A stretch of 28,899 nucleotides of DNA, taken from a virus. The DNA lies in the IMG/VR virus record IMGVR_UViG_3300033571_021049, positions 1 to 28,899 of that record; one strand, 5' to 3'. Numbering within the stretch: the stretch's first letter is position 1; every line of letters begins with the position of its first letter. Of the stretch, positions 69 to 27,799 are shown in pieces. The position numbers and the translations under genes are program-made. The notes beneath the pieces are model-generated. The model did not search any database. It was given only the letters and a program-made list of their open reading frames with translations, and was not told the DNA's origin.

Positions 69-166
69 AGGATAGGTGCAGCAAAAAAACTAGCATGACA
101 GTGGATGTCAATTTGCCTTCTAAGCAAACCTGGCGGGTTCGAATCCCGCTGCAAAAAACTATCCTG
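69..166 (+). tRNA. tRNA-Arg(TCT)-like RNA with aberrant acceptor region
   Basis: The core looks like a tRNA: D arm TGAC/GTCA (96-99/107-110), anticodon arm TTTGC/GCAAA with loop CTTCTAA (anticodon TCT at 119-121), and a perfect T arm GCGGG-TTCGAAT-CCCGC (133-149). No acceptor forms at the standard distance. Instead TGCA 77-80 can pair with TGCA 150-153, and AGGATAG 69-75 with CTATCCT 159-165. A-rich unpaired stretches lie between (about 81-95 and 154-158). No CCA is encoded. A canonical tRNA-Arg(TCT) lies at 2750-2824, so this copy may be a decaying duplicate or a non-translational tRNA mimic. The ends given are those of the outer helix and are inferred. Confidence 0.5.
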
Positions 167-3109: not shown

Positions 3110-3138
3110 TTGACTCTACAAATTTTTTGTGATATAAT
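3110..3138 (+). promoter_or_regulatory. consensus sigma70 promoter
   Basis: TTGACT at 3110-3115 and TATAAT at 3133-3138 are separated by exactly 17 bases. This is one mismatch from the ideal bacterial housekeeping promoter. It starts five bases after the tRNA-Thr CCA and should begin transcription near 3145. It would drive the structured RNA region and then the Ro60-like gene, pointing to early, host-polymerase expression. Confidence 0.85.
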
Positions 3139-3172: not shown

Positions 3173-3323
3173 AGGTAAGGTTCAGCAACACAAAATTAAA
3201 GCTGAATGTTAGTACTCTATGGTAAACACTGGAGCTTAACGGCTTTGAAGGTGTTTATTGAAATGGACCTAACAAAGGAGAGTTTCGTATTCTCTCTGTA
3301 AACAAAAAGTAGAAAACTTACCT
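3173..3323 (+). ncRNA. structured RNA, module A (multi-helix, closed by 7-bp stem)
   Basis: Hand pairing finds six nested helices in this non-coding stretch. P1 is AGGTAAG 3173-3179 with CTTACCT 3317-3323. P2 is TTCAGC 3181-3186 with GCTGAA 3201-3206. P3 is TGTTAG 3207-3212 with CTAACA 3269-3274. P4 is TAAACAC 3223-3229 with GTGTTTA 3251-3257, capped by GGAGC/GCTTT (3231-3235/3242-3246). P5 is GAGAG 3278-3282 with CTCTC 3292-3296, whose loop contains the T-loop-like TTCGTAT. The layout is roughly cloverleaf: closing stem, short arm, long arm, short arm. It lies just downstream of the consensus promoter and upstream of a Ro60-like gene, so a Y-RNA-like role is the leading guess. No folding program was run, and ends are set by the outer helix. 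Confidence 0.6.
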
Positions 3324-3333
3324 GTTGTTTTTT

Positions 3334-3513
3334 GGATGATTACAGCAATATAAACAAACTACGAAAGCGCCTAATAAGCGATAGTGCCTGTAGAATATAG
3401 GATAGTGCCAGTAGAATATTGGATCGGTTTCAATGACGAACATTGAATAGGGTTGTGAGTATAAACATGGCAACCAGAAAATAAATTACGGTACTCGGTC
3501 ATCCAGTTTGTTT
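3334..3513 (+). ncRNA. structured RNA, module B (serial hairpins)
   Basis: A non-coding stretch with consecutive hairpins: CGC/GCG (3368-3380); CCTGTA-GAA-TATAGG (3387-3401); CCAGTA-GAA-TATTGG (3408-3422); TTCAATG-ACGAA-CATTGAA (3429-3447); GGTTG/CAACC (3451-3455/3471-3475). Two long-range helices could close the group: AAACAAACT 3352-3360 with AGTTTGTTT 3505-3513 (9 bp) and GGATGAT 3334-3340 with GTCATCC 3498-3504 (7 bp, one G-T). These two cross, so they are either alternatives or a pseudoknot. The segment belongs to the same presumed transcript as module A. It could be a separate small RNA or the leader of the downstream gene. Confidence 0.55.
3380..3422 (+). repeat. two tandem 21-nt repeats forming GAA-loop hairpins
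   Basis: Units 3380-3400 and 3401-3421 share the pattern GATAGTGCC(T/A)GTAGAATAT(A/T)G. They differ at two positions, and those two positions pair with each other in the hairpin (T-A in copy one, A-T in copy two). The stem is therefore preserved by compensatory change between the copies. Confidence 0.75.
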
Positions 3514-3515
3514 TT

Positions 3516-3571
3516 AGGTTACTTGCAGCAATCAACCAACTATACTTGAAATGTAGCAAAAAAGGTAACCT
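3516..3571 (+). ncRNA. structured RNA, module C, next to Ro60-like start codon
   Basis: AGGTTAC 3516-3522 pairs perfectly with GTAACCT 3565-3571. TTGC 3523-3526 can extend the stem with GCAA 3556-3559, leaving a five-base bulge on the 3' side (3560-3564). A small inner stem (CTATAC with GTAG) is possible. Its flanks resemble module A: GTTTTTAGGT before the 5' strand and ACCTGTT(N)TTTT after the 3' strand. A stretch after module A (about 3340-3362) resembles 3523-3545. The 3' strand ends 22 nt before the ATG at 3593 and 9 nt before its ribosome-binding site, so it may affect translation of the Ro60-like gene. Confidence 0.5.
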
Positions 3572-3592
3572 GTTATTTTGAAAGGAAATGTT

Positions 3593-5023
3593 ATGAACAC
3601 TTTTGTAGACGCCGTTGTGAATCAAGAAGCTCGTACCACCAATGGTATGAAGGTTCGTAAGTCCACAGCTAATGCGGTTGTAGACCTGTTCTACAATATT
3701 GGTGCAAGCCGTGGGAAGGACATTGTTCCTGCTTTTACCGCTGCATTGGTTGAGAACCGTGAGTTGGCACTCCGTGTCGCTGCATGGGCTCGTGATGTTC
3801 GTGGTGGTGCAGGTGAACGTGAATCGTTCCGTAACATTCTCCGTTATTTGGAAAAGACTGATGTTGAAGCCGCAAAGGCTCTCTTGGCCAAGGTTCCCGA
3901 ACTTGGTCGTTGGGATGACATTTTTGTTTTCCAAACCGATGTGATGAAGTCTATGGCTTACACCATGCTTGGTGACGCATTGCGTGCTAAGAATGGTTTG
4001 GCTGCAAAGTGGACTCCACGCAAAGGACCTATTGCGGCAGAAATTCGTGCGTTCTTTGGAATGTCACCAAAATTCTATCGTAAGTCCTTGGTTGAAATGA
4101 CCAAGGTTGTTGAAACCCAAATGTGTGCTAAAGAATGGGATGCCATTAACTTCAGCCATGTTCCTTCTGTGGCGACTGCTCGTTACAAGAAAGCATTTAA
4201 TCGTAATACTCCAAAGTATGCGGAATATGTGCAAACACTTGTAAAGGGTGATAACCCAGAAGTGAAGGTCAATGCATCTGTGGCATACCCATACGATGTA
4301 TTGAAAGGTCGCATCAACAATTATGGTGTATCTTTCGACAAGACCGAATTGGACTTGATCGAAAAACAATGGGAAGCATTGCCTAACTATGTTGGTGATG
4401 CAAACATTCTACCTTTGGTGGATGTGTCTGGTTCTATGACCTGCCGTGCTGGTGGTCACCAATCTAAGTCTCAATTGACTTGTTTGGATGTTGCTGTGTC
4501 GCTTGGTCTATACCTTGCAGACAAGAACAAGGGTAAGTTCAAGGATACATTCCTAACTTTCTCTAGCAATCCAGAATTGATGCATCTAAAAGGTAACATC
4601 AACCAAAAGATTGACCAAATGGTCAAATCTAATTGGGATATGAGCACCAATCTACATGCAGCTTTCAAGAAAATTCTAGATACTGCTGTTAAAGGTAATG
4701 TGCCACAAGAAGAAATGCCAGAAATGGTATTGATTCTTTCTGACATGCAATTTGACCATTGTGTCAAGCATGACGATAGTGCAATTCAAATGATTGCACG
4801 TAAGTACCAAGAAGCAGGATACGAAATTCCGAAAGTAGTATTCTGGAACTTGAATGCTTCATATGGCAACTCACCTGTGAAGTTTGACAAGTCTGGTACT
4901 GCTCTGGTATCTGGATTCTCACCAGCAATCGTGAAACCTTTGCTGAGTGCAGACCTAGATGGTTTCACACCAGAAGCCGTGATGCTTAAAACCATCATGG
5001 ATGACCGTTACAAAGTAATTTGA
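3593..5023 (+). CDS. Ro60/TROVE-like DUF2828 protein with VWA domain
   Basis: A 476-residue protein. The N-terminal alpha-helical part carries DUF2828/TROVE signatures: RDVRGGAGERESFR near residues 67-80, VPELGRWDD at 101-109, KWTPRKGP, and an FSHVPSVA block. The C-terminal part is a von Willebrand A domain with an intact MIDAS motif DVSGS (D277, S279, S281) and a later D384 in LSDMQFD. Ro60-family proteins are RNA-binding rings that hold misfolded small RNAs and Y RNAs and, in bacteria, work with exonucleases. The DUF2828 link to Ro60 rests on domain order and motifs. ATG 3593 is chosen over in-frame TTG 3578 because AAAGGA lies 7 nt upstream. By eye, codons look more GC-rich at third positions (CGT, AAG, GAC) than in neighbours, suggesting transfer or high expression. 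The gene is surrounded by tRNAs and structured RNAs and reads from the 3110 promoter. Confidence 0.85.
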   Translation: MNTFVDAVVNQEARTTNGMKVRKSTANAVVDLFYNIGASRGKDIVPAFTAALVENRELALRVAAWARDVRGGAGERESFRNILRYLEKTDVEAAKALLAKVPELGRWDDIFVFQTDVMKSMAYTMLGDALRAKNGLAAKWTPRKGPIAAEIRAFFGMSPKFYRKSLVEMTKVVETQMCAKEWDAINFSHVPSVATARYKKAFNRNTPKYAEYVQTLVKGDNPEVKVNASVAYPYDVLKGRINNYGVSFDKTELDLIEKQWEALPNYVGDANILPLVDVSGSMTCRAGGHQSKSQLTCLDVAVSLGLYLADKNKGKFKDTFLTFSSNPELMHLKGNINQKIDQMVKSNWDMSTNLHAAFKKILDTAVKGNVPQEEMPEMVLILSDMQFDHCVKHDDSAIQMIARKYQEAGYEIPKVVFWNLNASYGNSPVKFDKSGTALVSGFSPAIVKPLLSADLDGFTPEAVMLKTIMDDRYKVI

Positions 5024-7639: not shown

Positions 7640-9247
7640 TTATTTCCTGTATTGTTGATCCACCATTTGTTGGTGTAGTCTATCAGATGACAGTTGCCTT
7701 AATGCTCTAACATTGTCTATTGTCACTTGATTTTTATAAATCACATCAGGTTTGTATAACTGTCCATCCTTGAGTGCTAAATTAAGATAAGTATTAAATC
7801 CTGCTGGTGTAACCGCAATGGATGATATGTCAACACCACCAGCCAATTCATTTGGTTGCACATTACTTCTTACTGTTTCCGTTTGTTGATCCATATTTGT
7901 ATTTTCCACATTTAATCGTTGTTGCAATATGTTATTCACGGGATTGTTAAGACCCATAACATTTGTTTGTTGTACTTCAACTTCAACTGTTCTTGATTCC
8001 ACTCTATTCATAGTAAATGTTGTGGTTGGTATAGTGGTTGGCAAAAGAGAATAATCAACTTTGGGCATTTGAATTTGAACTGTCGCCGCAGGCTGTTGAA
8101 CTTCAACTGCTCTCTGCGATTGTGACACAGAACTTATCATTGCACTTGAATTGGAGACTGCGGCAATTGTTTCATGTTGTCTTTCGTTTGTTCTTTGATT
8201 ATTTGCTATCACCATATTTGTTTGTTCTTGTGCATTTGCAATTGCGTTTGAAACTTCTTGTAATGCATTTTGAACTGCTGCCGATTGTACTGCTCTATCG
8301 TTGGCTTGTACCTGTCGTACAACACTCATTATCAAATTCATATTTGGTGCTGGCTTGTTTTCTTCGGATTTTTGTGACTCTTTAACAGATTGTGGAATAT
8401 TGTCCGGTGCGCTAATTGTACCTGTTGTTGAAACTTGCACGCCGCCAGCATCCACCTTGACTTCAGCCGAAGGTGTATCTGCAACAATTGGTAAAGTTGT
8501 TATCGTATTTACTGGCGCAGCTTGTACAGTTGTTGCTGGTGTTAATGTGCTGATTGCTGACAGATAACCCGAACAACTAGGTGAACTTAAAACATTTGTT
8601 GAACAAGGATCAACTGTGTACTTCAAAGAGAAGTTTATGTTGTTAACTTCTGGTCCATATGGTCCTGCCCAATAATTGTTATCTCTACCAACTAAACCGT
8701 AACGAACATTACCTAGACTGCTTGCAGCATATGGAGTTGTGAAGGTTTCATTGAAATTGAAAGTGGTCCAATTAAATTTATAATTTAAATTATAATTTTT
8801 ATTAGTTACAAGTCCACCCGAACGGTCATAAAGATTTACATAAGCACTTAACTGGTCCACTCTACCATCATCCCATCCATTGCCGTTCTTAGCGGTAAAT
8901 CCGAAAGTATATCCTGTTACCTGTAAGCCTGTACCAGAATTCGGTAAAAAGTTATTAACTGTTTGAATTTGATGGAGGTCGGTTTGACCAAAAGAAAAGT
9001 TAATATTATTTCCTGGTCGAACTATCGCATTTGGTCCACAATAACCTGGATTATCCCAGCCCCAACATGTCAGATTGTTTTGATAAACGCCATTCACCCA
9101 AGACGATGGACCGCCTTGAGGTGTATTGATAACGATGTTACCAGTATTATAAGTTTGACCTGGTATTAGTTCTTGTGCTTTACTTGAGCAACTTGTGAAC
9201 AAGAACGCCAAGGAAACTACCGATACCAATCTTTGTATAGGTGTCAT
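7640..9247 (-). CDS. large predicted lipoprotein, unknown function
   Basis: A 535-residue protein. Residues 1-20 are a signal peptide ending in a lipobox-like FTSC, with C20 the probable lipidated residue (F instead of L at -3). Residues about 25-215 are rich in Gly, Asn and aromatics (for example YNTGNIVINTP, CWGWDNPGYCGPN, NGNGWDDGRVDQLSAY) and look like a secreted beta-sandwich domain. The middle and C-terminal half is low-complexity and helical, rich in A, Q, V and T. Its first 68 bases overlap the end of the upstream gene in another frame, so signal-peptide codons double as C-terminal codons of the neighbour. Late expression, as a virion or cell-surface protein, is inferred from the block. 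Confidence 0.65.
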   Translation of the reverse strand: MTPIQRLVSVVSLAFLFTSCSSKAQELIPGQTYNTGNIVINTPQGGPSSWVNGVYQNNLTCWGWDNPGYCGPNAIVRPGNNINFSFGQTDLHQIQTVNNFLPNSGTGLQVTGYTFGFTAKNGNGWDDGRVDQLSAYVNLYDRSGGLVTNKNYNLNYKFNWTTFNFNETFTTPYAASSLGNVRYGLVGRDNNYWAGPYGPEVNNINFSLKYTVDPCSTNVLSSPSCSGYLSAISTLTPATTVQAAPVNTITTLPIVADTPSAEVKVDAGGVQVSTTGTISAPDNIPQSVKESQKSEENKPAPNMNLIMSVVRQVQANDRAVQSAAVQNALQEVSNAIANAQEQTNMVIANNQRTNERQHETIAAVSNSSAMISSVSQSQRAVEVQQPAATVQIQMPKVDYSLLPTTIPTTTFTMNRVESRTVEVEVQQTNVMGLNNPVNNILQQRLNVENTNMDQQTETVRSNVQPNELAGGVDISSIAVTPAGFNTYLNLALKDGQLYKPDVIYKNQVTIDNVRALRQLSSDRLHQQMVDQQYRK

Positions 9248-10211
9248 CTTTTCTTTCTTTTATTGGTGCTGGAATTTTTTGTGGGTTTGATTCCCATGCT
9301 GCTTTTGCTTGTTCGCCAATTCTGCCTTCGTATGGGCAAGGAGTGCCGGCTGCCATCATAGCATCCCATACTCTACGGTCTTGGCACATTGTTGCAACGG
9401 CAGCAACTTTCATACCCATGTCATAGAGTGTTTTAGAAAGTTTTAATCTCTCACAATTTTCATCACGAATCGTTCCACCAGCAGATATACCAAATATTTG
9501 TGTTTGAACTGCGCTACTTGAACCTGTAGTACACAAATCATTATTACCACCACTCATCATGGTCGGTGCAACAGCAGTTGGTGGTGGTTGAATTATTCGT
9601 TGTGTAACTTCAGAGGTGCTGATGTTACGATTCGTCATATCACCAGTCTGTACATTGTTGTTGGTGTTTGTATTATTTGATGTTGCAGTAGATATATTAT
9701 TGTTATTATTTGTCATCGTACCAGAGTTGATATTATTATTCGTATTCACATTGGTAGATGTACTAGCACTGGTACTTGAATTAACATTGTTATTATTATT
9801 TGTCATTGTACCACTATTAATATTATTATTCGTATTCACATTGGTAGATGTGCTGGCATTGTTATTGTTGTATGTCATTGTGCCAGAATTGACATTATTG
9901 TTTGTATTCACATTGGTACTTGTGGATGTGCTGGAGTTGACATTATTATTGTTATATGTCATAGTTCCAGAATTCACATTGTTGTTGGTGTTAACGCTTG
10001 TACTGGTGTTAACATTTGTTGAAACACTATTAACGTTCGTGTTGTTAGTGTTCACAGTCGTGGCTGTGCTAGTATTATTGGTGTTTACTGTGCTTGTAGA
10101 GGTAGATGTACTGTTTGTATCTACCAATGTTTTCGAATCATAGGTTGTTTGTGCAACGCTAGTTGATGTAGCCATGACAAAAAGCACCATTACGGATAAC
10201 TTTTTTATCAT
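9180..10211 (-). CDS. secreted Asn/Thr-repeat protein with conserved C-terminal domain
   Basis: A 343-residue protein. Residues 1-20 form a type I signal peptide (cleavage after SVA). Residues about 31-200 are almost only N, T, S and V, with five imperfect units of the NTNNN(V/I)NSGTMT type. Residues about 225-305 form a compact conserved-looking domain with four cysteines (DLCTTG, DENCERLKLSKTLYDMGMKV, TMCQDRRVWDAM, GTPCPYEG). A C-terminal hydrophobic segment (IGIGSFLGVLVHKLL) follows. The C-terminal block recurs in marine T4-like phages. The repeat is probably a flexible exposed stalk. AAAGGT precedes the ATG, and a TATAAATA late promoter lies about 80 bases upstream on this strand. Confidence 0.7.
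   Translation of the reverse strand: MIKKLSVMVLFVMATSTSVAQTTYDSKTLVDTNSTSTSTSTVNTNNTSTATTVNTNNTNVNSVSTNVNTSTSVNTNNNVNSGTMTYNNNNVNSSTSTSTNVNTNNNVNSGTMTYNNNNASTSTNVNTNNNINSGTMTNNNNNVNSSTSASTSTNVNTNNNINSGTMTNNNNNISTATSNNTNTNNNVQTGDMTNRNISTSEVTQRIIQPPPTAVAPTMMSGGNNDLCTTGSSSAVQTQIFGISAGGTIRDENCERLKLSKTLYDMGMKVAAVATMCQDRRVWDAMMAAGTPCPYEGRIGEQAKAAWESNPQKIPAPIKERKDDTYTKIGIGSFLGVLVHKLLK
9621..10025 (-). repeat. coding tandem repeats (Asn/Thr-rich)
   Basis: About five imperfect units of 25-30 codons encode (S/T)TNVNTNNN(V/I)NSGTMT(Y/N)NNNN with small insertions. Such DNA can change copy number by slippage or recombination, which would alter the length of the predicted stalk. Confidence 0.8.
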
Positions 10212-24809: not shown

Positions 24810-26003
24810 ATGAAATCGTTTCGAAGTTATTTAATTGAACAGGAAGATCCCGAAGAGGGTGCCAGCCGTCAGATTAAACATTTGACGCACGCTGAAGATC
24901 GTCCATTGCAAAACGGAGAAAAAGGTGCTGGCAGAGCACTAAAGATATTGGCTGCAGCTGCCGAACACATCAAACAAGGCAAGAAAACCTCAGAACTAAC
25001 CACAAAATATGATGGTTCTCCAGCAATTGTATATGGTCACCACCCTGAAACGGGCAAATTCTTTGTAGCGTCCAAATCGGCATTTAATAAGACACCAAAG
25101 ATTAATTATACCGAGAAAGACATTGAAAAGAATCATGGCCATGCGCCAGGCCTGGTAAAGAAACTAAAAGACGCACTGAAACACCTACCAAAAGTTGCAC
25201 CAAAAGAAGGTGTATATCAGGGTGATATGATGTTCTCACAAGAGGACAAACACAAAACAAAAGATGGTACGTCTTTTCATCCAAACCCATCTGGACTAAC
25301 ATACACTGCCCATGGCACACACAAAGCCGCTGTGGACAAAGCAAAAATCGGTGTCGTTACACATCTATCATATAAGGGTAAAGATGCCAAAAGTTTGAAT
25401 GCAAACCACGAAGTTGACCATGAAAATTTTGGTAAACATTCAGATGTTTTCTCGGTTGACCCTAGAATGGACACATCTAAGGTACATTTCAGTCCACAAC
25501 AACAAAAAGAATTCAGTAAACACCTATCTGCTGCTCAATCTGTACATGATACGCATGGTGATGACATGTATGCAGGAACAAAGATACATCAGGGTATCGG
25601 TGGCCACTTAGAAACCTATATGAATCACACGGTCAGAACAGGTGAACAACCAAATCACCAAAATTTTAAGAACTGGCTGGAAACCAAGAAGAATAAAGAA
25701 ATCGACAAACTAAAAGTCGAAAAGAATAAGACAGCTAAGCAATCCGAACTGAAAGGTGAGTTAGACAAGATTGAACGTAATAAGAAACATTACAATAATC
25801 TATTCAAAATGCATGGTCACTTACAAGCTGCAAAGAATACATTGATTGATGTTATGAATCAACATCAAGAATTTCAACACACACATGGTGGTGAAAATGC
25901 TAACCCTGAAGGTTATGTTTTTCATCATTCCGGTGATTCCGACAAATTTGTTAACCGCCAAGAGTTTTCTCGTAGAAATTTTGCGGGAATAAGAAACATA
26001 TGA
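24810..26003 (+). CDS. DUF6267-like, ligase-fold nucleotidyltransferase candidate
   Basis: A 397-residue, Lys- and His-rich protein. TTKYDGSPAIVYG has a KxDG motif (K66), the AMP/GMP-accepting lysine motif of ATP-dependent ligases and capping enzymes, and EGVYQGDMMF (133-142) resembles motif III (xxGExx). The N-terminus MKSFRSYLIEQ looks like the capsid-targeting leader of T4 internal proteins (MKTYQEF type). Similar proteins in cyanophages are called DUF6267. It may be a nucleic-acid-joining or nucleotidyl-transferring enzyme carried in the head. Activity is unproven because the other ligase motifs (IV and V) are not clear. The gene is the first after a late promoter and its stop overlaps the next ATG (4 bases). 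Confidence 0.6.
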   Translation: MKSFRSYLIEQEDPEEGASRQIKHLTHAEDRPLQNGEKGAGRALKILAAAAEHIKQGKKTSELTTKYDGSPAIVYGHHPETGKFFVASKSAFNKTPKINYTEKDIEKNHGHAPGLVKKLKDALKHLPKVAPKEGVYQGDMMFSQEDKHKTKDGTSFHPNPSGLTYTAHGTHKAAVDKAKIGVVTHLSYKGKDAKSLNANHEVDHENFGKHSDVFSVDPRMDTSKVHFSPQQQKEFSKHLSAAQSVHDTHGDDMYAGTKIHQGIGGHLETYMNHTVRTGEQPNHQNFKNWLETKKNKEIDKLKVEKNKTAKQSELKGELDKIERNKKHYNNLFKMHGHLQAAKNTLIDVMNQHQEFQHTHGGENANPEGYVFHHSGDSDKFVNRQEFSRRNFAGIRNI

Positions 26004-27799
26004 AAAAGTTTTTAGAAAAGATTCAAGAGGATTTACAGACACACACGCCTGTGGTGATGGCTTTTGGCCGCATGAATCCTCCAACAATTGGACATGAAAA
26101 GTTGGTCAACCGAGTAAAAGAAATTGCTCAAGACTATCATGCTCCACACCACATTATATTGTCACATTCCATGGATGCGAAAAAGAATCCGTTGGATGTG
26201 GCAGCTAAAATTAAGCACGCAAAAAGATTTTTTCCAAATACCAACATCATTTCTTCCAGTAAAGACAAACCAACGTTTTTACAACATGCAGCTGCATTAC
26301 ACCAGGCTGGACACGATCATCTAATTATGGTTGCCGGATCGGATAGAATACCTGAATACGAACAAAAACTGCATCAGTATAACGGTGAAGGTCCAGGAAA
26401 ACTATTTAATTTCAAAAAGATTGAAGTTAAATCTGCTGGCCAACGTGATCCTGATGCCGAAGGTGCAGAAGGAATGTCAGCATCCAAGATGCGTGAACAT
26501 GCCAAAAATAATGACCTTGCCTCTTTTAGACAAGGTGTTCCATCTCATGTACCAGAAAAACATGCAAAAGAATTATTTCGTGATGTGCGCCGTGGCATGG
26601 GTATCAATGAACAAAATGAACGTGGTATGTTCAAAGCAATTTTCATAACTGGTGGACCAGGTTCTGGTAAAGATGTAATTTTACGTGAAGCAATTGCTGA
26701 ATCCAAAATGGTAGAAATTAACCTGTCACAAGCTTTCGAATACTTGGCAGACAAAAAGAAACTCTCTGAAAAAACAAACGATTATCGTAGAGAGTCAATC
26801 AGAAAACGTGGTCCACTCATCATAAATGGTCCAGCAGACTGCAACGAAGATATATTATATGTGAAAGAAGAACTGGAAGAACTTGGATATAAAACATCCA
26901 TGGTTTTTGTGAGTACCACAAATGAAGTCAGTCAGGAAAGAAACCAGAAACTTTCCAAAATGATTGCCGAATCTGTTAGAAATGACAAGTGGAAATTATC
27001 ACAAAAATACAAAACTGATTACTCATCAATGTTTGAAGAATTCATGGTCGTAGATAATTCAAAGAACCTACAAGATATCGAAGAAGAAATTACCGAGACA
27101 TATAAAAAATTAAATTCTTTTATTGATTCAACAGAAAAAACTGACACTGCAATGTTATGGTTAGAAAACCATGGTATGCTAAATATAAATGATTCTATTC
27201 AATCTTTATTTAAGGAAGAAAAAAATGATAAAGTGGTTTCTAGATTTATTCAAAGGTTCCAAGAAAGTCGAGGATCAAAAACATCCCCTAGACTTCACAA
27301 GTCGGACAGCAATGGTCGAGCCATCGGCCCAAGTGATATCCCAGCCGATAACCGAGCCTCAGACCCCAACAGTGACAACATCAAGTGGGACGCCAACAAG
27401 CGCCGTGGAGGTTACACCTTCAGAACCTACACAGAAGCCGAAGAAACCACGAACAAAAAAACAAACTTCAGCAAAGACAAAGAAAAAGTAAAGAAAAACA
27501 GATTTTCCGATAGTCCAACCGTAAATCAAAGAATGAGAAACGTTACATCTATCGGACCCGAATTTGATACTCGCCAACAGGGAACAGTATACCCAATGTC
27601 AGGCCTCGGCGATGTAACATATAGAGAATCGAAGAATTTTTTATCTTTTAGAAATTCACTAAAAGAATCATTTATGGATCCAGGCGACAACGAAATGGGT
27701 GTTGGTGGTGTTTTGAATGGTGCAACAAATAAAGAGCCAATTCAAAATCCAAAAGATAACATTGGTATAACAATTTTAAAGAAGAAGAAAAAGAAATGA
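26000..27799 (+). CDS. NMNAT-like nucleotidyltransferase fused to P-loop kinase with long tail
   Basis: A 599-residue protein. Residues ~15-200 are a cytidylyltransferase-like domain: AFGRMNPPTIGHEKL (a T/HxGH motif, IGH at 30-32), VAGSDRIPEY, and GMSASKMREH (SxxxxR, ISSTxxR-like) at 158-167. Residues ~210-380 form a P-loop kinase with Walker A GGPGSGKD (218-225). This order resembles NadR-type NMN adenylyltransferase/nicotinamide-riboside kinases, although cyanophage homologues are usually just called cytidylyltransferase. A basic tail follows, with an RFSDSP ... GLGDVTYRESKNFLSFRNSL segment. The N-terminus MKKFLEKIQEDL may be a packaging leader. Codons in the tail (about 27225-27490) have unusually C-rich third positions, where another gene overlaps. 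Confidence 0.7.
   Translation: MKKFLEKIQEDLQTHTPVVMAFGRMNPPTIGHEKLVNRVKEIAQDYHAPHHIILSHSMDAKKNPLDVAAKIKHAKRFFPNTNIISSSKDKPTFLQHAAALHQAGHDHLIMVAGSDRIPEYEQKLHQYNGEGPGKLFNFKKIEVKSAGQRDPDAEGAEGMSASKMREHAKNNDLASFRQGVPSHVPEKHAKELFRDVRRGMGINEQNERGMFKAIFITGGPGSGKDVILREAIAESKMVEINLSQAFEYLADKKKLSEKTNDYRRESIRKRGPLIINGPADCNEDILYVKEELEELGYKTSMVFVSTTNEVSQERNQKLSKMIAESVRNDKWKLSQKYKTDYSSMFEEFMVVDNSKNLQDIEEEITETYKKLNSFIDSTEKTDTAMLWLENHGMLNINDSIQSLFKEEKNDKVVSRFIQRFQESRGSKTSPRLHKSDSNGRAIGPSDIPADNRASDPNSDNIKWDANKRRGGYTFRTYTEAEETTNKKTNFSKDKEKVKKNRFSDSPTVNQRMRNVTSIGPEFDTRQQGTVYPMSGLGDVTYRESKNFLSFRNSLKESFMDPGDNEMGVGGVLNGATNKEPIQNPKDNIGITILKKKKKK
27225..27491 (+). CDS. overprinted 88-residue Pro/Thr/Lys-rich protein
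   Basis: This lies wholly inside the previous gene in the +1 frame. AAGGAAG at 27212-27218 ends six bases before ATG 27225, a better ribosome-binding site than most genes here have. The predicted protein starts MIKWFLDLFKGSKK (amphipathic helix), continues with a Pro/Thr/Ser/Glu-rich linker, and ends in a Lys-rich tail (KPKKPRTKK, KTKKK). This style is common in small phage proteins. In the overlap the long frame shows C-ending codons atypical of the window. That the longer frame extends through and beyond argues for genuine dual coding, but a frame shift or fusion history is possible. Function unknown. Confidence 0.5.
   Translation: MIKWFLDLFKGSKKVEDQKHPLDFTSRTAMVEPSAQVISQPITEPQTPTVTTSSGTPTSAVEVTPSEPTQKPKKPRTKKQTSAKTKKK

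What the first reader, a model, noticed from the sequence alone, without database searches (positions are those of the whole stretch)
3173..3571. Duplicated RNA modules with covarying 7-bp closing stems
Modules 3173-3323 and 3516-3571 share flanks (GTTTTTAGGT ... ACCTGTT-N-TTTT) but have different middle pairs in the closing stem: AGGTAAG/CTTACCT versus AGGTTAC/GTAACCT, both perfectly complementary. A shared AGCAAT...AACTA motif (about 3340-3362 and 3523-3545) supports duplication. Compensatory differences between copies point to selection on RNA structure.
Basis: seen in the sequence. Interest (0 to 1): 0.7.

Follow-up and report, generated by a model that had tools for sequence, protein, structure and literature searches.

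The report
Phage Y-RNA-like family beside Ro60-like gene
The two look-alike RNA modules belong to a large, apparently undescribed family of phage noncoding RNAs that share one base-paired 'handle', carry interchangeable tRNA-like inserts, and sit beside a gene for a protein with the fold of the human autoantigen Ro60, so they are probably phage relatives or analogues of Y RNAs.

Summary
The window holds four modules, not two: 69-165, 3173-3323, 3333-3505 and 3516-3571, all on the + strand. Each has the frame [A/U]G-N5 + 3 nt + CAGCAA ... N5'-C[U/A]-GUU. Their inserts differ. Directly downstream (3593-5023) is a DUF2828/DUF7788 protein whose predicted structure matches Ro60 over its whole length (VIA Z 20.8).

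The frame lies upstream of that gene in 82 of 83 loci, and a covariance model finds it in 15 of 16 isolated phages with the gene against 1 of 6 controls (weakly). The closing stem is 100% paired in 40 diverse modules; five of seven pairs change on both sides. Inserts mimic tRNA parts far above shuffled controls: T arms 28 versus 0.07, anticodon arms 36 versus 7.

Best reading: a Y-RNA-like ribonucleoprotein system with one handle and exchangeable tRNA-mimic inserts. Binding and function are inferred, not shown. The handle is not that of known bacterial Y RNAs. It closely resembles that of Dictyostelium Class I RNAs, reported as unique to social amoebas, but scores stay below Rfam's cut-off, so the modules are not filed there.

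The parts
69..165 (+). module M0: stem AGGATAG/CTATCCT, CAGCAA 79-84; insert with anticodon-arm-like hairpin 112-128 (TTTGC-CTTCTAA-GCAAA) and T arm 133-149 (GCGGG-TTCGAAT-CCCGC); 10 nt before tRNA-Leu
3110..3138 (+). sigma70-like promoter TTGACT-17-TATAAT (11 of 12 consensus) ahead of the module array
   Evidence: consensus match only; shuffles give similar counts
3173..3323 (+). module M1: stem AGGTAAG/CTTACCT, CAGCAA 3183-3188, covarying structured insert with GAGTTTCG hairpin 3278-3297
3516..3571 (+). module M3: stem AGGTTAC/GTAACCT, CAGCAA 3526-3531, anticodon-arm-like hairpin 3540-3556 (CTATA-CTTGAAA-TGTAG)
3580..3588 (+). presumed ribosome-binding site GAAAGGAAA of the Ro60-like gene, 8 nt after M3
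   Evidence: sequence
3593..5023 (+). Ro60-like protein P0001 (DUF2828 + DUF7788 vWA, phrog_850 RNA-binding protein); predicted fold matches Ro60 over full length

Best explanation
The modules are genes for a family of phage noncoding RNAs that work like Y RNAs. Each RNA is a cassette. A constant handle (7-bp end-joining stem with invariant G-C and an outer A-U or U-A pair, 3 nt, unpaired CAGCAA, then GUU after the stem) is bound by the Ro60-like DUF2828 protein encoded beside it. An exchangeable insert displays a structure, often a mimic of a tRNA part: an anticodon arm in short modules, T/D/acceptor elements or a circularly permuted tRNA-like body in modules of about 100 nt, other folds in longer ones. 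The RNAs are made from arrays that often also hold tRNA genes, and the insert is offered to tRNA-handling proteins while the Ro60-like ring holds the handle. Shown: the handle, its covariation, its linkage to the gene, the Ro60 fold (predicted), the tRNA mimicry. Inferred: that the protein binds the handle, that modules are processed out, and that inserts recruit or absorb tRNA-binding enzymes. The last module, 21 nt before the start codon, may also let the protein regulate its own translation.
For: Pairing-blind test: 20 of 31 distinct stem pairs perfect versus mean 2.7, max 9 in 1000 shuffles. Exact 7-nt stems at one fixed distance from CAGCAA: 222 on + versus 8 on -. Detector 294 + versus 15 -. 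Covariation on 40 modules. A covariance model finds modules in phages not used to build it: Citrobacter Ci1 8e-10, Vibrio nt-1 7e-9, Stenotrophomonas DLP6 3e-8, Ochrobactrum OC 6e-8. Controls without DUF7788: 5 of 6 none. Upstream of the gene in 82 of 83 loci, median 22 nt to the start codon. Ro60 fold. Anticodon arms 36 versus 7.2 (max 15), T arms 28 versus 0.07 (max 1). YrlA hits inside modules of Klebsiella KP2025 and mycobacteriophage UPIE. Modules in tRNA arrays mostly lie 6-7 nt after and 10-11 nt before tRNA genes.
Against: No binding, expression or processing data for any module. Pfam TROVE is not matched and vWA_Ro60 only at E 0.049, so the Ro60 link rests on a predicted fold and on others' HHpred annotation. 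In several phages the modules lie kilobases from the gene, so membership of tRNA arrays could explain part of the neighbourhood. The most abundant ncRNA of Listeria phage CKA15 is not a module. 114 of 150 inserts showed no anticodon-arm mimic.
Confidence: 0.75

Rival explanations
1. Cis-regulatory leader only: the modules are binding sites in the 5' UTR of the Ro60-like mRNA through which the protein represses its own synthesis; they are not independent RNAs.
For: The last module ends a median 22 nt before the start codon (21 in the window), next to the ribosome-binding site.
Against: Modules also lie inside tRNA arrays kilobases away or downstream of the gene; the window's M0 is 3.4 kb upstream among tRNAs; inserts are elaborate and conserved by type, which a plain operator does not need.
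Confidence: 0.12
2. A specific version of the best explanation: the RNP displays anticodon arms as decoys that absorb or titrate host defence nucleases which cleave tRNAs at the anticodon.
For: Anticodon-arm mimics with U33 and mostly A37; an LAh_6 module carries TTGACTTTTAATCAA, identical to the E. coli tRNA-Lys(UUU) anticodon arm; inserts differ between related phages.
Against: No nuclease is linked; many inserts mimic T arms or other folds; the anticodons are varied rather than concentrated on known targets.
Confidence: 0.3
3. The tRNA-like modules are decayed or mobile tRNA gene fragments caught between conserved stems, without a role.
For: Modules lie in tRNA arrays and some inserts contain clear tRNA pieces.
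Against: Closing stem kept with double changes, fixed 9-nt register and near-invariant CAGCAA across unrelated phages, T arms intact, M1-type insert with 18 pairs changed on both sides.
Confidence: 0.03

Closest known systems
Y RNAs / bacterial YrlA (Rfam RF02553) with Ro60/Rsr
   Same: ends joined by a stem, Ro60-fold protein gene nearby, tRNA-mimic domain in part of the modules (YrlA hits at 40.1, 39.8 and 34.3 bits in modules)
   Different: hits below the 69-bit cut-off; the YrlA consensus lacks the stem + 3 nt + CAGCAA frame; here tandem arrays with many insert types, including anticodon arms alone; partner is DUF2828/DUF7788, not Pfam TROVE
Dictyostelium Class I RNA (Rfam RF01414; PMC7919456)
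   Same: start AAG, 6-bp stem with invariant 5' G and compensatory changes, motif C..CAA beside the 5' stem, end CUGU, 42-65 nt, variable insert, many copies; RF01414 matches seven modules in four unrelated phages at 22.6-33.4 bits
   Different: all below the 41.5-bit cut-off; one nucleotide shorter between stem and motif; U mostly at motif position 4 rather than 3; phage rather than amoeba; inserts up to about 300 nt; known Dictyostelium binder is an RRM protein, Rnp1A
Abundant ncRNAs of Listeria phage CKA15 beside its Rsr-like gene CKA15_055 (PMC12282133)
   Same: authors suggested Y RNAs near a Ro-like protein; CKA15 has three modules at 25,291-25,551, directly before CKA15_055
   Different: the most abundant RNA region (26,236-26,727) is not a module; coordinates of the other two abundant regions are not given in the passages read

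Membership tests
Ro60 / TROVE proteins (for P0001) | helical-repeat region plus vWA domain in the Ro60 arrangement | tested here: met
   AF2 pLDDT 85.9; Foldseek top ten all Ro60/TROVE, E 1.9e-9; VIA Z 20.8 over 410 residues
Ro60 / TROVE proteins (for P0001) | Pfam TROVE profile match | tested here: not met
   only DUF7788 and DUF2828 pass; vWA_Ro60 at E 0.049, under its cut-off
Ro60 / TROVE proteins (for P0001) | MIDAS metal site DxSxS in the vWA domain | tested here: met
   D277, S279, S281, T352, D384 invariant in 17 and 25 aligned relatives
Y RNA / YrlA | Rfam model at or above gathering score | tested here: not met
   no hit in the window; best module hits 40.1 and 39.8 of 69 bits
Y RNA / YrlA | tRNA-like domain | tested here: met
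   for a subset only: 28 of 150 inserts with a T arm versus 0.07 shuffled; in the window M0 only
Y RNA / YrlA | bound by a Ro60 protein | not testable with these tools
   needs a binding assay
Dictyostelium Class I RNA | 6-bp covarying terminal stem with invariant 5' G, CUGU end | tested here: met
   feature list from PMC7919456
Dictyostelium Class I RNA | 11-nt motif with T3, C6, C9, A10, A11 | tested here: inconclusive
   C6, C9 and A10 100% (required by the detector), A11 91%; T mostly one position later
Dictyostelium Class I RNA | Rfam RF01414 gathering score 41.5 | tested here: not met
   best 33.4 bits
Dictyostelium Class I RNA | shared partner protein (a DUF2828 protein in Dictyostelium) | not testable with these tools
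   no eukaryotic genomes are held

The most novel reading that the evidence does not exclude
The phage modules and the Dictyostelium Class I RNAs are one ancient RNA class defined by the handle (AG-stem, CAGCAA, stem-CUGU), whose general partner is the DUF2828/DUF7788 branch of Ro60-fold proteins. In phages the class has radiated into cassettes that display tRNA parts, some probably as decoys or baits for tRNA-cutting defence enzymes.
Probability: 0.35. Interest if true: 0.92.

Novelty: new variant of a known kind. Interest (0 to 1): 0.8.

Why it matters
It gives a protein family found in 678 phage records, usually labelled DUF2828, hypothetical or RNA-binding, a likely RNA partner with a precise candidate recognition site. 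That makes its function directly testable. It suggests that phages carry Ro60-type RNPs whose RNAs are modular tRNA mimics, relevant to tRNA-targeting anti-phage defence. It also offers the first candidate relatives, outside social amoebas, of the orphan Class I RNAs.

Tried and rejected
Simple duplication of one RNA: rejected, inserts are unrelated. Known Rfam family: nothing at gathering score in the window except tRNAs. A first whole-record pattern search used a register one nucleotide too long and is valid only as a shifted-register control. The idea that the most abundant CKA15 ncRNA is a module: rejected. Requiring A before G and CUG after the stem missed modules with a swapped outer pair (M2, mycobacteriophage UPIE) and was relaxed. 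The strict detector failed in several isolates because their modules lie elsewhere in the genome; the covariance model found them. One control, Prochlorococcus phage P-SSM2, gave two weak hits (E 0.0013 and 0.027), so single hits near 1e-3 in AT-rich genomes are not trusted; the hits in Bacillus 136, Sinorhizobium phiM19 and UPIE are of that strength, and the UPIE modules rest. Alignment A6 was made of modules chosen by pairing, so its 100% is partly circular; searches are the independent tests. Searches of the literature for the Pfam accession and for Dictyostelium + TROVE gave nothing useful. The VIA list was only a second look at Foldseek's candidates.

Full report
Observation. The stems and flanks described are exactly in the sequence. 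A detector for the frame finds four modules in the 28.9-kb window, all on the + strand: M0 69-165, M1 3173-3323, M2 3333-3505 and M3 3516-3571. Shuffled windows give 0.2. All four share [A/U]G-N5, three nucleotides, CAGCAA, then an insert, then N5'-C[U/A]-GUU. The inserts are different.

Neighbourhood. The window is an IMG/VR virus record. M1-M3 lie between a tRNA cluster and a gene at 3593-5023. A sigma70-like promoter (TTGACT-17-TATAAT, 3110-3138) precedes M1 and no intrinsic terminator was found, though such promoter matches are expected by chance. The protein has Pfam DUF2828 and DUF7788 and PHROG 850 'RNA-binding protein'. Its AlphaFold model (pLDDT 85.9) matches Ro60 structures over the full length: Foldseek E 1.9e-9 with the first ten hits all Ro60/TROVE, and VIA Z 20.8 over 410 residues. 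The MIDAS residues are invariant. By sequence it is not a Pfam TROVE member.

Relatives. Eighty IMG/VR relatives were fetched, and 678 phage records encode the protein. Upstream of the gene nearly every locus has such modules with varied inserts: 82 of 83 loci, the last module a median 22 nt before the start codon. In isolated phages the same frame, in the same 9-nt register, is beside the gene in Salmonella FelixO1, Aeromonas LAh_6 (seven modules), Listeria LMTA-34, Klebsiella KP2025, Campylobacter CP81 and a Synechococcus phage, and in several bacterial contigs. One bacterial contig, Novimethylophilus (module seen), also carries TrfA- and actin-like genes, so it may be a mobile element.

Statistics on the handle. 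Pairing 5' and 3' elements by order only, 82 of 101 unique modules had 5/5 Watson-Crick pairs; among distinct stems 20 of 31 were perfect versus mean 2.7 and max 9 in 1000 shuffles. Exact 7-nt stems around CAGCAA peak at one distance, 222 on + versus 8 on -. The detector gave 294 + versus 15 - and 56 distinct stems among 223 unique modules. On 40 short modules the stem is 100% paired, five of seven pairs change on both sides, and the covariation score is 0.797 versus 0.186 shuffled and at most 0.144 slid; this set was chosen by pairing. A covariance model built from it finds modules in phages not used to build it, with E down to 8e-10, and in 15 of 16 DUF2828 phages overall, a few of them weakly (alignments). 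Of six controls lacking DUF7788, five gave nothing and one gave two weak hits.

Inserts. Short inserts often form a hairpin with a 7-nt loop (21 of 53 versus 3.7 in shuffles), with U at the position of U33 in 17 of 21. Across 150 non-redundant inserts, 36 have an anticodon-arm-like hairpin (mean 7.2, max 15 in 500 shuffles; the count includes some T arms) and 28 have a T arm (0.07, max 1). Short inserts alone, which have no T arms in that list, give 15 versus 1.7 (max 6). An LAh_6 module contains TTGACTTTTAATCAA, identical to the E. coli tRNA-Lys(UUU) anticodon arm. M3 carries CTATA-CTTGAAA-TGTAG; M0 carries an anticodon-like arm and a T arm. Rfam YrlA, the tRNA-mimicking bacterial Y RNA, is found in modules of Klebsiella KP2025 and mycobacteriophage UPIE, below its cut-off. 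M1-type inserts have their own structure (18 of 32 pairs of the whole module with double changes); M2-type inserts have a weaker consensus. Of 246 unique modules, 43 lie within 25 nt of a same-strand tRNA gene, typically 6-7 nt after the upstream tRNA and 10-11 nt before the next. This suggests they are cut out together with tRNAs.

Interpretation. The anatomy (Ro60-fold protein, RNA with joined ends and a constant end part, tRNA-mimic distal part) is that of a Y RNA RNP. What the RNP does is inferred. Known bacterial Y RNAs tether Ro60 to a nuclease (D. radiodurans, as summarised in PMC12282133). For phages the likeliest use is to hold or absorb proteins that act on tRNAs. Decoys against anticodon nucleases are an attractive but untested version. 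The module next to the ribosome-binding site may add autoregulation.

Comparison with the known. Phage Y RNAs have been suggested before: for mycobacteriophages (cited in PMC12282133) and for Listeria phage CKA15 from expression data (PMC12282133). In CKA15 three modules lie right before the Rsr-like gene, but its most abundant ncRNA is elsewhere. I found no description of this handle, of the tandem arrays or of anticodon-arm mimics in the held literature; key Y RNA papers were not held. The handle agrees in detail with Dictyostelium Class I RNAs (AAG start, covarying 6-bp stem with invariant G, C..CAA motif, CUGU end), said to be unique to dictyostelids. RF01414 matches seven modules in four unrelated phages, always over the whole model and nowhere else in the scans, but under its cut-off (best 33.4 of 41.5 bits). 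Common origin is possible, convergence is not excluded, and I do not file the modules as Class I RNAs.

Verdict. A real, widespread, structured RNA family; a new variant of the Y RNA / Ro60 kind. Confidence is high for the RNA family, good for the Ro60-like partner, moderate for a tRNA-directed function, low to moderate for the Dictyostelium link.

Noticed in passing
L016 5613-6133 (IMGVR_UViG_3300008110_005605): Permuted tmRNA (RF04321, 82.9 bits, above cut-off) encoded on a phage contig of the same group.
   Followed up: no
L120 about 4050-4545 (Listeria phage cka15 26,236-26,727): The extremely abundant untranslated RNA region of CKA15 (annotated as CKA15_059-061) has no Rfam match at gathering score and holds no module; an unidentified large RNA.
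   Followed up: partly
L091 2405-2500 (Aeromonas phage LAh_6): The annotated start of the DUF2828 gene lies upstream of RNA modules; the alignable protein begins at 2501, so the annotated start is probably wrong.
   Followed up: partly
L005 2862-2974 and related loci: Insert looks like a circularly permuted tRNA: anticodon arm, T arm, joined acceptor strands, D arm, in that order.
   Followed up: partly
all modules, the first nucleotides after CAGCAA: The 7 positions after the core almost lack G (0-2% each), unexplained; may be kept single-stranded for protein contact.
   Followed up: no
L104 (Erysipelotrichaceae MAG contig): DUF2828 relative whose matched stretch contains one in-frame stop under table 11.
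   Followed up: no
window 9180-10211, - strand: Protein with long Asn/Thr/Ser/Val repeats (NNNVNSSTSTSTNVN type).
   Followed up: no
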